Assembly (NCBI RefSeq): GCF_014352875.1
Contig: NZ_CP060695.1
Span: forward strand, 1,209,501 to 1,273,500
DNA from: Polaribacter pectinis
Lineage (GTDB): Bacteria > Bacteroidota > Bacteroidia > Flavobacteriales > Flavobacteriaceae
Reading direction: 5' to 3'
Length of the DNA: 64,000 nucleotides
Numbering within the stretch: the first letter of the stretch is position 1; each line of letters opens with the position of its first letter. Made by a program: the position numbers and the translations under genes. Below are positions 59,596 through 63,677 of this stretch, one piece after another. Under the pieces are notes generated by a model. That model was given only the letters and a program-made list of their open reading frames with translations. It did not search any database and was not told where the DNA came from.

Positions 59596-61110
59596 TTAAA
59601 TATATTCACCTATTTTACCCACAAACTCAACAGCAGTATAAGGTTTAGAAATCACATCAACAAAACCAATATTTTTATATCTTTCAATATCTTCTGGTGT
59701 TGTATTAGCAGTTAAAGCTAAAAAAGGGATTATAATATTTGCCCTATTGAAATCTTTTTTCTGCTGCATTAATTGTTCTCCTGTAATATTTGGCATGTGA
59801 ATATCTAGTAAAACCAAATCAAAAACATCACTTTTTAACTTATTTAAAGCTTCTAACCCGTCTTTTACAAGCGTTAGCTTTACGTCTTCTTTTTTTAGAA
59901 TGTGAGCAACTATAGTTTGATTTAGAGCATCATCATCTGCAACTAAAATTCTTTTTCCTGTAAGACTTTTCTTTTCGGAAATTATTACTTTCTTTTTAAT
60001 TTGAGATTTTGCTTTTAAGAACGGAATTTGAACTGTAAAAGAAGTACCTTTATCTAATTCGCTTTCTACAGAAACGGTTCCACTCATCGCATTTAAAAGT
60101 CTTTTTACGATTGATAAACCTAATCCTGCTCCACCAAAAACACGATTGTCGCTTTTTTTGTTTTGCTGATATTCATTAAAGATTTTAGAAGACTGTTCCT
60201 TTGTCATTCCTCTTCCTGTATCTTTAATTTCGAAAGCTAAATTCACGTTATTTTCATCTTCAGAAACAAAACGCACATCTAATGCTATTTCTCCTTTTTG
60301 AGTAAATTTTAACGAATTAGACATTAAATTAGAAAGAATTTGATTAATTCTTACATCATCTCCTAAAACAATATTTGGTATTTTTTTTGAAACGCTTAAA
60401 ACAAGTTCTACTTCTTCATTTTTATTTTGAAGCTTGTAGTTTGCAATACAATTTTCTGCAATTTCTTTAATGCTTATTTCTGAATTTACAAGCTCTAATT
60501 TCCCAGCTTCAATTCTAGATAAATCTAAAATATCATCTACAATAACTTTTAAATTCTTACCAGAGATGGATAATAATTTTGAATATTCTTGTACGTTTTT
60601 ATTAATTTCTTCTTTAGAAATCATTTCAGCGTAACCTAAGATAACATTCAATGGGTTTCTAACTTCATGACTCATCATTGCCAAAAAGCGCGACTTTTCT
60701 TCATTTGCTTTGTCAGCAATTTTACGAAGTTTATCAAGTTCAATATTTTTTTCTGCAAGCTCTCTTTTAATGAAGAAAATATCGTTTCTATTTTGATTGA
60801 GTTGATCTACTATCTTATAAACGTTTGTTCTATTATGAATTAACACAACAACTGTATTTTCCTCTTTAAATAACTCTACATCTACATTGTACTCATTTTC
60901 TTTTGAAACAATAACCATTCCTTCTAAAAGAAAAGACTCTTTTAGTGGTAAAGATTCTAAAATTCCTTCTAAAAATGGGCAAGATTCATAAATTGAAGCT
61001 TCTATAGTAAATTCTTCTTTAGCAAATCTACCAGCGTTTATGCTTTTTATAACTCCAAAAGAATTGGTAGTTAGTTGTAAAAAAACATCTTCTATTTTTG
61101 CTGGTATCAA
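59596..61110 (-). CDS. Hybrid histidine kinase with C-terminal receiver domain
   Basis: A 504-residue cytoplasmic hybrid kinase without membrane helices: an N-terminal PAS-like sensor (about 5-105), a short coiled coil (106-140), HisKA with H148 in MMSHEVRNPLN, HATPase with N box QILSNLMSNSLKF, GRGMTK and GAGLGLSIVKRLL, then a receiver domain (386-504) with acidic pair in VADDD and phospho-acceptor D436 (LLLDIHMPN). It is the last gene of the GTPase operon, starting 6 bp after the GTPase stop. The first residues KIEDVFLQLT echo the end of the GTPase (NVEDAFLQLT). Confidence 0.93.
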   Translation of the reverse strand: MIPAKIEDVFLQLTTNSFGVIKSINAGRFAKEEFTIEASIYESCPFLEGILESLPLKESFLLEGMVIVSKENEYNVDVELFKEENTVVVLIHNRTNVYKIVDQLNQNRNDIFFIKRELAEKNIELDKLRKIADKANEEKSRFLAMMSHEVRNPLNVILGYAEMISKEEINKNVQEYSKLLSISGKNLKVIVDDILDLSRIEAGKLELVNSEISIKEIAENCIANYKLQNKNEEVELVLSVSKKIPNIVLGDDVRINQILSNLMSNSLKFTQKGEIALDVRFVSEDENNVNLAFEIKDTGRGMTKEQSSKIFNEYQQNKKSDNRVFGGAGLGLSIVKRLLNAMSGTVSVESELDKGTSFTVQIPFLKAKSQIKKKVIISEKKSLTGKRILVADDDALNQTIVAHILKKEDVKLTLVKDGLEALNKLKSDVFDLVLLDIHMPNITGEQLMQQKKDFNRANIIIPFLALTANTTPEDIERYKNIGFVDVISKPYTAVEFVGKIGEYI

Positions 61111-61160
61111 CAGGTTCTATTTTAAAGCTTTGGCTGTTAATTGTAAAAAAGCGTCTTCTA
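61070..61160. repeat. In-frame 25-bp direct repeat across the GTPase/kinase gene boundary
   Basis: 61070-61094 and 61136-61160 are identical at 22 of 25 bases and lie 66 bp (22 codons) apart in the same reading frame. The first copy encodes the kinase N-terminus (ED-FLQLT), the second the GTPase C-terminus. Confidence 0.7.
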
Positions 61161-61602
61161 CATTATCATTTTCTTTGGCACTAGTAACCAAATCGATATT
61201 TACAGAAACGTTTTGTATTATGTTTTCTAATTCACTTTCGGAAAGTAAGTCTTTCTTATTACCTACAACTGTAATTTCTTTTAGCCCAGATAATTCTTTA
61301 ACCATATTTAGATTTTCATCAATGGTTAAATAGGTTTCTTCTCTGCTTAAATCAAAAACAAACATAGCTGCGTTTGCTCCTAAAAAATAAGCTTTTGGTA
61401 TTTTTTCATTGCCACTTGTTCCGGCAACATCCCAAATCATTAATTTAATTTGTTCGTTGTTATATTCCACAACTTTTTTACTAACTCTTACACCAATTGT
61501 ACTGATGTAATCTTCGGAAAATTCATTTAAAACGAATCTTCTAATCAATGAAGTTTTACCAACTCCGAAATTACCAACAAGCAGTACTTTTTTAGCAATC
61601 AT
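61117..61602 (-). CDS. Ras/Rab-like small GTPase
   Basis: A 161-residue GTPase domain with nothing added. G1 is GNFGVGKTS (10-18), the switch I Thr is T35 in YISTIGV (a Rab-like wording), G3 is WDVAG (57-61), G4 NKKD (115-118) and G5 TSAK (140-143). After G3 the catalytic Gln of Ras/Rab is absent: the residues are T62-S63-G64-N65, so intrinsic hydrolysis should be slow and a GAP is likely required. There is no C-terminal Cys, hence no prenylation. It starts 15 bp after the putative roadblock-like gene and ends 6 bp before the hybrid kinase gene. Confidence 0.9.
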   Translation of the reverse strand: MIAKKVLLVGNFGVGKTSLIRRFVLNEFSEDYISTIGVRVSKKVVEYNNEQIKLMIWDVAGTSGNEKIPKAYFLGANAAMFVFDLSREETYLTIDENLNMVKELSGLKEITVVGNKKDLLSESELENIIQNVSVNIDLVTSAKENDNVEDAFLQLTAKALK

Positions 61603-61617
61603 AAATTTGGTTGACTT

Positions 61618-62427
61618 TTATTCTTCGATTAATTGCTGAAAAATTAATGTATTTAAACGTTCTTCATCAGATAAATAAGTACGATCTCTTAAAATAATTT
61701 CAGCCAAATTATTTATTTTTTCTGATAAGCCTTCTTTAAATTCTCTAGTTATTACACCTGAAGTTGCAGTAGCAATATAAATGCTTTTAAAATTTTGAAT
61801 GGAAAGTTGAAAGGTTTCGAATTTAATATCTTCTAAATCTTGACCTTCTTTAGAAAAAGCATCTTCTGCAAAAGATTTAATGGCTGTTAGCATGCCAGAA
61901 ACCATATCTTTATCTGCAATATTACCTCGAGAATAACTACCTGAAAGCAATCCTGAATCTTTTTCGATAATAAAAACTTCTTCTATGGTAGCTTCAAAAA
62001 CTTCATTTAAAACAACATTTGCGTCGTTTTTCTTCCCTTTAAAGAATCTTTTAATAATCTCTTGAATAGAAAATTTTTCTTTTACTGTTTTATTAATGCT
62101 GTCAGACAACTTTGTTATTTCACTAACAATAGCTTTCTTAACCAATTTACCCATAATTGGGTATAAGGCTTCTACAACTTCGTCTTGAGAATCTCTAATT
62201 TGTACTTTAATAGTTTCTGTTATGGTGCCTCCAAAATATTTTGGGAAGTTTTCACGAAGGTCTTCAATTTTTTCATCTACAAGAGGTGACACTTTTTTAG
62301 AAAATTTTTCCTTTTGGATAATTTCTTCACTAAGTGCTTCAAATTTTTCTCTATCGTCTTCTAACAGAAGTTCTCTAAGCAGCTCAAAACGATTGTCTTT
62401 TTTGTTATCTGCAGCTGGTTTCTTCAT
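61618..62427 (-). CDS. Putative GTPase-associated regulator with roadblock/longin-like C-terminal domain
   Basis: A 269-residue cytoplasmic protein. The N-terminal ~125 residues are charged helices (ELLREL, EDDREKFEALSEEI) like those preceding OmpA-like domains in some proteins, but no OmpA domain follows. The C-terminal half (about 145-250) has a strand-helix pattern EVFIIEKDSGLLSGSYSRG, then DKDMVSGMLTAIKSFAEDAF and FKSIYIATATSG. This layout of two strands, a long helix, and more strands is that of roadblock/LC7 or longin domains, which regulate small GTPases. Identification is by pattern only. It abuts the coiled-coil gene with no gap and lies 15 bp before the GTPase gene. Confidence 0.72.
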   Translation of the reverse strand: MKKPAADNKKDNRFELLRELLLEDDREKFEALSEEIIQKEKFSKKVSPLVDEKIEDLRENFPKYFGGTITETIKVQIRDSQDEVVEALYPIMGKLVKKAIVSEITKLSDSINKTVKEKFSIQEIIKRFFKGKKNDANVVLNEVFEATIEEVFIIEKDSGLLSGSYSRGNIADKDMVSGMLTAIKSFAEDAFSKEGQDLEDIKFETFQLSIQNFKSIYIATATSGVITREFKEGLSEKINNLAEIILRDRTYLSDEERLNTLIFQQLIEE

Positions 62428-62781
62428 CTATTCTTGCAACATCAATGCAATTTTCTCTAGCGCTTTTCCTAATTTTCTTCTGTCAGCTTTTTCATCATCT
62501 AAATCAGCAAGTCTTTTATCTAAATCATCATTTAAGTCTTGGAATTTATGTTCCATTAAACTTTCTAAATCCGCTAATTTATTTTCTAAATTAGTAACAG
62601 ATTCCGATAAATTCTTTTGATTTTGCTCTTTTAATGCTTTTATTTTGCTGTAAATATCATCAAATTCGCTGTTATACTGCTGAATATTTTCGCCAAAGAT
62701 TAAGTCTCTTACTGCTGCAATTCTGCTATCTACTTCTTGAACTGAATCTGGAGCTTTGCTTTTTTCTGACTTTTTTTCCAT
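62428..62781 (-). CDS. Coiled-coil protein of the GTPase operon
   Basis: A 117-residue charged protein, mostly coiled coil (about 38-105, with heptads in KIKALKEQNQKNL and LENKLADLESLMEHKFQDL). The N-terminal helix SRIAAVRDLIFGENIQ is a conserved-looking segment, perhaps a docking element. No signal peptide or membrane helix. I do not recognise a characterised family. As the first gene of the GTPase/kinase operon it may scaffold the module. Confidence 0.75.
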   Translation of the reverse strand: MEKKSEKSKAPDSVQEVDSRIAAVRDLIFGENIQQYNSEFDDIYSKIKALKEQNQKNLSESVTNLENKLADLESLMEHKFQDLNDDLDKRLADLDDEKADRRKLGKALEKIALMLQE

Positions 62782-62825
62782 GTATTTTTAGTTGAGTTAA
62801 TAATTTGGGGAATGTTGGTTAAACA

Positions 62826-62870
62826 ATACAGCCTAAAACTATAAGTTTTAATGCTGTATAAACAAATATA
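62826..62870 (-). promoter_or_regulatory. -7 box with overlapping inverted repeat at the start of the GTPase operon
   Basis: On the minus strand TATATTTG (62870-62863) matches TAnnTTTG. Directly after it comes an inverted repeat of 7 + 7 pairs (62826-62832 with 62853-62859; 62834-62840 with 62844-62850), so the mRNA would begin within or just before a hairpin. It could be an operator or a stabilising leader, or a weak terminator of the preceding hydrolase gene. Confidence 0.45.
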
Positions 62871-62894: not shown

Positions 62895-63677
62895 CTAAAC
62901 CTCAATTTTTAAACCATCATAAGCTAAAAACACATTTTTTGGTAGTTTTTTAGAAACTGCTTCATGAAAACCTAATTTATGGCTAATATGTGTAAAATAT
63001 GTTTTTTTAGGCTTCAATTCTTTAACAAAATCAAGTGCTTCTTCTAAATTAAAGTGGGTTGGATGTGCTTCTATTCTTAAAGCATTTACAATAAGAACAT
63101 CTAATTTTTTTAATTTTTCTTTCTCTTTTGCTTCAATACTTTTAACATCTGTTAAATAGGCTACATCTTCAATTCTATAACCCGTAACTGGTAGGTTTCC
63201 ATGCAAAACTTCAATTGGAGTAACCACAACATCTTGTATTGAAAATTGAGATTCATCAACCAAAAAAGGAGTAACACTTGGCGCTCCTGGATATCTATTT
63301 TCTTTTGAAAAAATATACTGAAAACGTTGCTCTAAACTCTGTAATGTTCTTTTGTCTAAATAAATTGGCATCTCTCCTATTTGGTAACAAAAAGGACGTA
63401 AATCATCTAAACCCGCAGTATGATCTGAATGTTCATGAGTAAATAAAACACCGTTTATAGACTGTACATTTTCTCGCAACATTTGTTGTCTAAAATCTGG
63501 GCCACAATCTATAACATACGCACAATCATCCCAAGAAATTAAAATTGAAGAACGTAAACGCTTGTCTTTAATATCATTAGATAAACAAACAGGATCTTTA
63601 CTAGCAATCATAGGAATTCCTTGTGAAGTCCCAGTTCCTAAAAAAGTAATTTTTAACAGTTTTTTATCTAAATTCAT
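62895..63677 (-). CDS. MBL-fold metallo-hydrolase (PhnP-like)
   Basis: A 260-residue metallo-beta-lactamase-fold enzyme of the PhnP/RNase Z branch. The metal site is formed by HEHSDHTAGLDDLRPF (about 80-95; HxHxDH), the His in EVLHGNLPVTG near 160 and YFTHISHKLGFHEA near the end. PhnP-type members hydrolyse cyclic phosphodiesters; no phn genes are nearby, so a cyclic nucleotide or nucleic acid-derived substrate is likely. The opening KITFLGTGTSQGIPMI is characteristic. A TATTTTTG box ends 5 bp from the ATG. Confidence 0.9.
   Translation of the reverse strand: MNLDKKLLKITFLGTGTSQGIPMIASKDPVCLSNDIKDKRLRSSILISWDDCAYVIDCGPDFRQQMLRENVQSINGVLFTHEHSDHTAGLDDLRPFCYQIGEMPIYLDKRTLQSLEQRFQYIFSKENRYPGAPSVTPFLVDESQFSIQDVVVTPIEVLHGNLPVTGYRIEDVAYLTDVKSIEAKEKEKLKKLDVLIVNALRIEAHPTHFNLEEALDFVKELKPKKTYFTHISHKLGFHEAVSKKLPKNVFLAYDGLKIEV

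What the first reader, a model, noticed from the sequence alone, without database searches (positions are those of the whole stretch)
59596..62870. Four-gene signalling operon joining a Ras-like GTPase to a hybrid histidine kinase
Genes with gaps of 0, 15 and 6 bp encode, in order, a coiled-coil protein, a protein with a roadblock/longin-like pattern, a bare Ras/Rab-like GTPase and a soluble hybrid histidine kinase. Seen directly: intact G1, G3, G4 and G5 motifs, T35 in switch I, but no catalytic Gln (G3 is followed by T-S-G-N); H148 and D436 in the kinase. Known: MglA/MglB and other prokaryotic Ras-like/roadblock pairs control polarity and motility. Inferred: the putative roadblock-like protein is the GAP or adaptor, the GTPase sets the state of the kinase, and the coiled coil is a scaffold. 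A gene-level coupling of a small GTPase to phosphorelay output in one operon is, to my knowledge, not well described.
Basis: partly seen in the sequence, partly recalled or inferred. Interest (0 to 1): 0.78.

Follow-up and report, generated by a model that had tools for sequence, protein, structure and literature searches.

The report
Bacterial Rab-like GTPase–longin–kinase operon
A marine bacterium carries a four-gene signalling unit in which a small switch protein resembling those that steer traffic inside our own cells sits beside a protein whose predicted shape also belongs to that machinery and beside a bacterial sensor kinase; the gene set was described in 2014, the likely shape of the partner was worked out here.

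Summary
In detail: four co-directional genes (gaps 0, 15, 6 bp) encode a small protein (CC), a 269-aa protein (RB), a Ras/Rab-like GTPase without the G3 glutamine, and a soluble hybrid histidine kinase. The claimed novelty, GTPase plus kinase in one operon, is not new: this fits the "Group 1 Rup" four-gene system of Wuichet & Søgaard-Andersen 2014 (PMC4316618); actinobacterial conservons are a second known case.

Favoured mechanism: a longin platform loads or recruits the GTPase, which docks on the PAS-Q domain and sets kinase state. No interaction, nucleotide or phosphotransfer step is shown.

The parts
62863..62870 (-). TATATTTG, promoter-like element (fits the Bacteroidota -7 consensus TAnnTTTG, recalled), 81 bp before the first start codon
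   Evidence: present in the 115 bp upstream of the first gene in 28 of 32 sequences (window plus 31 Polaribacter-type loci)
62428..62781 (-). CC: 117-aa small, probably coiled-coil, protein
   Evidence: family conserved next to RB; coil not predicted by a dedicated tool
61618..62427 (-). RB: 269-aa protein, long helical N-terminal half plus C-terminal longin-like domain (both predicted)
61621..61992 (-). predicted longin domain of RB, residues 146-269
61117..61602 (-). Ras/Rab-like GTPase, Rup Group 1 type, no Gln after G3
59596..61110 (-). soluble hybrid histidine kinase, TTG start inferred
60775..61071 (-). PAS-Q domain, kinase residues 14-112
   Evidence: PAS-like by profile comparison; conservation
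60793..60795 (-). codon of invariant Gln106, just after the PAS-like fold
   Evidence: 78 of 78 kinases; 35 of 36 in the mixed set of outputs
60502..60696 (-). HisKA domain, residues 139-203, phospho-accepting H148
60019..60363 (-). HATPase_c domain, residues 250-364
59620..59949 (-). receiver domain, residues 388-497, D436

Best explanation
A soluble, Bacteroidota-type member of the Group 1 Rup small-GTPase signalling system. It consists of two sub-modules: CC+RB, where RB presents a (probably dimeric) longin domain as docking platform or exchange factor for the GTPase; and GTPase+output, where the GTPase binds the PAS-like Q-domain at the N-terminus of the hybrid kinase. Nucleotide state changes the PAS-exit helix leading into HisKA and so the kinase and receiver activity; the near-invariant Gln106 on that helix may complete the Gln-less GTPase active site and reset the switch. 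In the sampled relatives outside the class RB is tethered to the envelope by a membrane helix and OmpA domain; here that tether is absent and the whole device is cytosolic. Shown: genes, order, co-occurrence, duplication of GTPase+PAS-Q as a unit, Gln conservation. Predicted: longin and PAS-like folds. Inferred: all binding, GEF/GAP roles, direction of signal, output.
Against: No interaction was modelled or measured. The central longin helix region is modelled with low confidence (blocks 64, 68, 51). Pfam recognises neither longin nor PAS above cut-off. Profile comparisons with Robl_LC7 are weaker for full-length RB (score 25.0, 14%) and for OmpA-type-only profiles (21.5 and 23.1; 4 and 7%). 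The PAS-Q HMM did not hit the sigma-54 or simple-kinase outputs at E<=0.05, and for simple kinases profile comparison is weak (20.7, 5%; shuffle maximum 13.9). Genome G182 keeps CC-RB without a detectable GTPase, so CC-RB may have a role of its own. One of 90 GTPases (L107) has Gln after G3. Distance-matrix co-evolution did not single out GTPase-PAS-Q: among 45 non-Polaribacter loci receiver and kinase core tracked the GTPase as well or better.
Confidence: 0.6

Rival explanations
1. Reverse direction: kinase or PAS-Q domain is the sensor and regulates the GTPase, which is the output, as Wuichet & Sogaard-Andersen posit for the conservon GTPase.
For: PAS-like domains are common sensors (recalled); stand-alone PAS-Q proteins without output domain exist; conservon precedent read in PMC4316618 section 18.
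Against: Output domains change (hybrid kinase, simple kinase, sigma-54 activator, weakly cyclase-like) while GTPase, RB and CC stay, which is what swapping outputs downstream of a fixed switch would look like.
Confidence: 0.25
2. RB's longin domain is only a dimerisation or localisation scaffold and does not touch the GTPase; CC-RB is a separate device that happens to be co-regulated.
For: Some longin proteins, such as SNAREs, have roles outside small-GTPase regulation (PMC10933270, passage); G182 keeps CC-RB alone; three f19 genomes have RB and GTPase on different contigs.
Against: All 43 GTPase-bearing genomes have RB; shared order in 78 of 80 loci.
Confidence: 0.2
3. An MglA/MglB-like polarity or gliding-motility module.
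For: Same fold superfamily for the partner; MglB appears in the Foldseek list (rank 48).
Against: Best structural matches are longin proteins, not MglB; D58 of G3 is kept, which PMC4316618 says is the rule in GTPases other than MglA; that paper found 0 of 121 Rup-subclade sequences coupled to MglB; no Robl_LC7 match in this genome. Flanking families were listed but not searched for motility genes.
Confidence: 0.06

Closest known systems
Group 1 Rup GTPase system (Wuichet & Sogaard-Andersen 2014, PMC4316618; passages and section 18 read)
   Same: Gln-less Ras-like GTPase; four conserved genes: coiled-coil protein, domain-of-unknown-function protein, rup GTPase, signalling output with an invariant Gln in its N-terminal region; Bacteroidetes included
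   Different: Here the unknown-domain protein is soluble (no membrane helix, no OmpA) and its unknown domain is predicted to be a longin domain; the output N-terminus is PAS-like; sigma-54, weakly cyclase-like and stand-alone versions and the duplicated GTPase+PAS-Q unit were not in the passages read (its supplementary tables were not seen)
Actinobacterial conservon / AGPS (PMC13343842, outline and abstract read; PMC4316618 section 18)
   Same: Small GTPase, histidine kinase-like protein and a roadblock/longin-class protein in one operon
   Different: MglA-type GTPase, MglB-type roadblock, CvnC protein, membrane-spanning kinase, no response regulator; phylum Actinomycetota
MglA/MglB of Myxococcus xanthus
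   Same: Bacterial Ras-like GTPase with a partner of the roadblock/longin superfamily
   Different: Predicted partner topology here is longin (extra C-terminal helix); GTPase of another family; no PAS-Q kinase in the pair
Eukaryotic longin Rab regulators (TRAPP, Mon1-Ccz1, Fuzzy-Inturned/CPLANE)
   Same: Longin fold next to a Rab-like GTPase; best fold matches include these
   Different: Eukaryotic, multi-subunit, act in membrane traffic or ciliogenesis (recalled); sequence identity 5-16% in the structural alignments listed; homology versus convergence not settled

Membership tests
Group 1 Rup four-gene system | small single-domain Ras-like GTPase with Ras-type G1-G5 | tested here: met
   161 aa, PF00071 E=6.7e-33; K16, D58, G61, N115, K116, D118, S141-A142-K143 invariant in 90 of 90 aligned
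Group 1 Rup four-gene system | no Gln after G3 | tested here: met
   T62 in the window; 89 of 90 related GTPases without Gln there
Group 1 Rup four-gene system | neighbourhood of coiled-coil protein, unknown-domain protein, output module | tested here: met
   coil itself not predicted with a coil tool
Group 1 Rup four-gene system | unknown domain often followed by membrane helix and OmpA | tested here: not met
   absent in window RB; present in more distant relatives (OmpA in 4 of 4 scanned; hydrophobic segment in 10 of 10). The paper says 'often', so this does not exclude membership
Group 1 Rup four-gene system | invariant Gln in N-terminal region of the output | tested here: met
   Gln106, 78 of 78. 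That it is the same Gln as in the paper's logo was not checked (figures are not held)
Group 1 Rup four-gene system | placement in the Rup Group 1 clade of a GTPase tree with the 2014 sequences | not tested
   the 2014 sequences were not at hand
longin superfamily (RB residues 146-269) | longin topology b-b-a-b-b-b-a-a | tested here: met
   predicted elements E147-155 E161-166 H173-190 E200-203 E206-212 E216-223 H228-247 H249-253 H255-268; a prediction, not a solved structure
longin superfamily (RB residues 146-269) | structural match to solved longin domains | tested here: met
longin superfamily (RB residues 146-269) | sequence-family recognition (Pfam longin/roadblock model above cut-off) | tested here: not met
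   below cut-off: Fuz_longin_1 in 5 of 70 members (best E 0.05) and in L126 (E 0.11), Intu_longin_1 in 2 of 74 (best 0.016)
roadblock/MglB (PF03259) | Pfam Robl_LC7 match | tested here: not met
   no match in window RB at E<=1 or in the whole genome at E<=0.001; profile-profile similarity only
conservon / AGPS | CvnC-type (DUF742, recalled) protein and MglA-type GTPase | tested here: not met
   no such family among the listed Pfam or NCBIfam matches (the Pfam list for CC and the NCBIfam list for the kinase are capped at 25); GTPase keeps D58 in DxxG
PAS domain (kinase residues 14-112) | Pfam PAS family match | tested here: not met
   no PAS match in 31 members at E<=1
PAS domain (kinase residues 14-112) | profile similarity across the full PAS domain | tested here: met
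   82 columns, score 27.8, probability 53%, maximum of 60 shuffles 19.2
any of the above | GTP binding/hydrolysis, partner binding, phosphotransfer | not testable with these tools
   needs experiment

The most novel reading that the evidence does not exclude
Bacteria possess a widespread Rab-like GTPase paired in its operon with a true longin domain, i.e. the Rab-longin partnership that organises eukaryotic membrane identity exists as a bacterial signalling device, with the PAS-Q domain as a portable GTPase-effector domain that lends the missing catalytic Gln and plugs one switch into kinases, sigma-54 activators and others. The Rab/longin pairing would then be older than, or independent of, Asgard archaea and eukaryotes.
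Probability: 0.3. Interest if true: 0.85.

Novelty: new variant of a known kind. Interest (0 to 1): 0.6.

Why it matters
[quoted passage not shown] no later experiment was found in the open-licence library. A longin-fold protein in the same operon gives a concrete candidate regulator, makes the missing-Gln question testable with four small soluble proteins, and bears on whether the Rab-longin partnership of eukaryotic cells has bacterial counterparts.

Tried and rejected
Rejected: (1) 'first operon joining a small GTPase to a kinase': PMC4316618 and PMC13343842 describe such operons. (2) MglA/MglB polarity module (see rivals). (3) Defence system: PADLOC gave three weak matches (one on the kinase, two on CC, best E 1.5e-4) and none on RB or GTPase. 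(4) FtsZl1/OmpA/GTPase membrane-remodelling module (PMC2875224, passages read): its GTPase has a TxKD signature and the text has no occurrence of Ras, roadblock or longin; not this system. (5) Decayed genes: frames are intact here; stops inside RB were seen in relatives G062 and G097.

Led nowhere: sequence searches of full RB against the PDB; PAS-Q profile against the PDB (best E 0.04 to an EXD1 entry); distance-matrix co-evolution: in 45 non-Polaribacter loci partial correlations with the GTPase given RB were PAS-Q 0.41, kinase core 0.47, receiver 0.52; in 22 Polaribacter-type loci 0.37, 0.18, 0.08; read as uninformative. A GTPase-PAS-Q docking model was prepared (alignment A4) but its submission met a full queue, and since models come without coordinates it was not sent again; the second job went to a deeper RB alignment. 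An upstream inverted repeat in the window, seen by eye, is not conserved in the aligned relatives. Pfam longin hits are weak and sit among chance families with as many or more members; they count as hints only. One structural row (4afi_A) has rmsd 13.1 and is not relied on.

Rows dropped before counts: kinase alignment used 77 of 80 loci with a kinase frame over 450 aa beside the GTPase; A2 used 69 of 80 loci; L155 was left out of RB profiles; 1 of 20 roadblock loci gave no sequence; 1 of 30 PAS loci was dropped; a 130-aa first GTPase of L079 was left out of the GTPase alignment and tree. The 80 loci are the best 80 of 196 confirmed and were found by two RB peptide patterns, so order conservation is conditional on RB being present. 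The phylum survey found RB in 14 of 395 genomes. The 74 OmpA-type proteins were chosen from the 120 listed of 2274 found with a 606-aa OmpA-type query, so OmpA in 74 of 74 is partly by choice of query.

Papers: PMC4316618 passages and section 18; PMC13343842 outline and abstract; PMC3521125, PMC13015309, PMC10933270, PMC2875224 passages; others search listings only. Bacterial longin domains: searches showed no listed paper naming one in a Rup system; only open-licence papers are searched, and most listings were not opened.
Full report
WHAT IS THERE. On the minus strand at 62781-59596 lie four adjacent genes, gaps 0, 15 and 6 bp: CC (117 aa), RB (269 aa), a 161-aa Ras-family GTPase (PF00071 E=6.7e-33; the best solved relatives are Rab proteins) and a 504-aa HisKA-HATPase-receiver kinase with H148 and D436. 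None shows a transmembrane segment. The GTPase keeps G1, T35, G4 and G5 but has T after DVAG. Upstream, TATATTTG at 62870-62863 fits the Bacteroidota promoter box (consensus recalled) and is present in 28 of 32 upstream regions. The nearest named proteins are from Polaribacter.

A REAL UNIT. Of 199 genomes of the family, 46 match RB and 43 match the GTPase at E<=1e-15; all 43 are among the 46. The other three are an RB with stops (G062), a CC-RB pair without GTPase (G182) and a marginal hit with stops (G097). Of 80 related loci (best 80 of 196), 63 read CC-RB-GTPase-kinase, 9 CC-RB-GTPase-PASQ-GTPase-kinase, 3 CC-RB-PASQ-GTPase-kinase, 2 have two PAS-Q frames between two GTPases (in L079 perhaps one broken gene), 1 has an extra kinase, 1 lacks a detected CC (L100) and 1 is cut by its contig end (L105). 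The five commonest flanking families of the 49 other loci (37-40 of 49) occur in 0-1 of the 31 Polaribacter-type loci, and the five commonest of the latter (24-26 of 31) in none of the former. RB and GTPase trees both put the Polaribacter type with Roseivirga and Flexithrix (97/93; 92, not starred, quick method), consistent with transfer of the unit between Cytophagales and a Polaribacter ancestor; long branches make this tentative.

KNOWN SYSTEM. PMC4316618 (section 18; passages) describes Group 1 Rup GTPases, lacking the G3 Gln, in neighbourhoods with a coiled-coil protein, an unknown-domain protein often followed by a membrane helix and OmpA, and an output (diguanylate cyclase/phosphodiesterase or histidine kinase) whose N-terminal region has an invariant Gln; the authors speculate that the Gln acts in trans and draw the conservon analogy. 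The window's operon fits. In the 11 genomes of other classes of the phylum found, RB frames are 598-738 aa; OmpA was found in the 4 scanned (2 also with BON) and a hydrophobic segment in the 10 computed. In the wider family OmpA is in 74 of 74 chosen proteins, and source names include Rhodothermales, Acidobacteria, Planctomycetota, Pseudomonadota and the cyanobacterium (recalled) Halotia. The short form (268-299 aa in the 79 complete loci, and in G506 of another family of the class) is a variant.

THE KINASE N-TERMINUS. F46, Y98, Q106 and N109 are invariant in 78 of 78 kinases. In a mixed set of 36 (13 hybrid kinases, 14 stand-alone, 9 outputs of more distant loci) only Q106 stays above 90% (35 of 36; the one S, L084_X2, has a Gln next door and may be misaligned). 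Profile comparison aligns 82 columns to PAS, score 27.8, shuffle maximum 19.2; no Pfam PAS hit in 31 members. Q106 follows the strand and DxT-like motif that end the fold, at the start of the helix running to HisKA. The fourth gene can instead be a sigma-54 activator (L147, L148, L149) or a kinase without receiver (L150, L153, L154, L157, L158; L155), or a 309-aa protein with a sub-threshold cyclase match (L163, E=0.0033; none in its relative L164). An HMM of the domain missed the sigma-54 and simple-kinase outputs at E<=0.05; profile comparison supports it in sigma-54 activators (score 29.0, 54%, maximum of 40 shuffles 19.2) and the cyclase-like proteins (40.0, 92%, maximum 16.6), weakly in simple kinases (20.7, 5%, maximum 13.9). 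These did not match PAS itself (under 1%), so PAS-likeness is supported for the Flavobacteria-type set only.

TWO SUB-MODULES. In 11 of 80 loci GTPase and PAS-Q are duplicated together; the first-position GTPases (10 of 11 in the tree) form one clade (99) and second-position ones group with single copies of the same lineage. In 12 OmpA-type places of 11 genomes the set is co-directional in 5 (L147, L148, L149, L154, L157), divergently split in 4 (L150, L153, L155, L158) and on different contigs in 3 (L151, L152, L156); every split separates RB (with CC where found) from GTPase+output. This is the best evidence here that the GTPase's direct partner is the PAS-Q domain.

MECHANISM. Favoured: RB's longin platform recruits or loads the GTPase; the GTPase docks on PAS-Q and sets the exit helix and so the kinase; Q106 may complete hydrolysis. 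Output swapping argues that the output is downstream. My estimates: functional unit 0.95, longin fold 0.85, RB-GTPase contact 0.7, PAS-Q-GTPase contact 0.65, Gln in trans 0.35. All binding and catalysis are inference; one GTPase (L107) has Gln after G3 and co-evolution gave no decision.

VERDICT. Observation confirmed; its claimed novelty is already in print; the predicted longin identity of the partner and the portable PAS-Q domain are the testable additions.

Noticed in passing
61110 (window): The kinase seems to start at TTG, 6 bp after the GTPase stop; in L066 and L067 no ATG is seen at this place either, which may mean translational coupling.
   Followed up: no
L068, L069, L071, L072, L076, L079, L082, L084, L091, L112, L114: Operons with two GTPases and a stand-alone PAS-Q protein between them; a duplicated GTPase+PAS-Q unit.
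   Followed up: yes
L163:5517-6443, L164:4255-5208: PAS-Q fused to a possible degenerate class III nucleotide cyclase domain (Guanylate_cyc E=0.0033 in L163, none in L164), between GTPase and kinase, away from CC-RB.
   Followed up: partly
L147, L148, L149: Sigma-54 activators with a PAS-Q-like N-terminus as the fourth gene of the Rup set.
   Followed up: partly
L159:5294-6566: Intact CC-RB-like pair in genome G182 without a Rup-like GTPase match (E<=1e-6) in the genome.
   Followed up: partly
L160:4006-4281: Remnant of RB in G062, with stop codons in the matched stretch; the system can decay.
   Followed up: no
L107 GTPase: The only one of 90 related GTPases with Gln directly after G3.
   Followed up: no
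   Followed up: no
62895-63677 (window): Upstream neighbour is an MBL-fold hydrolase; its family flanks the operon in 26 of 31 Polaribacter-type loci and in none of the 49 others.
   Followed up: partly
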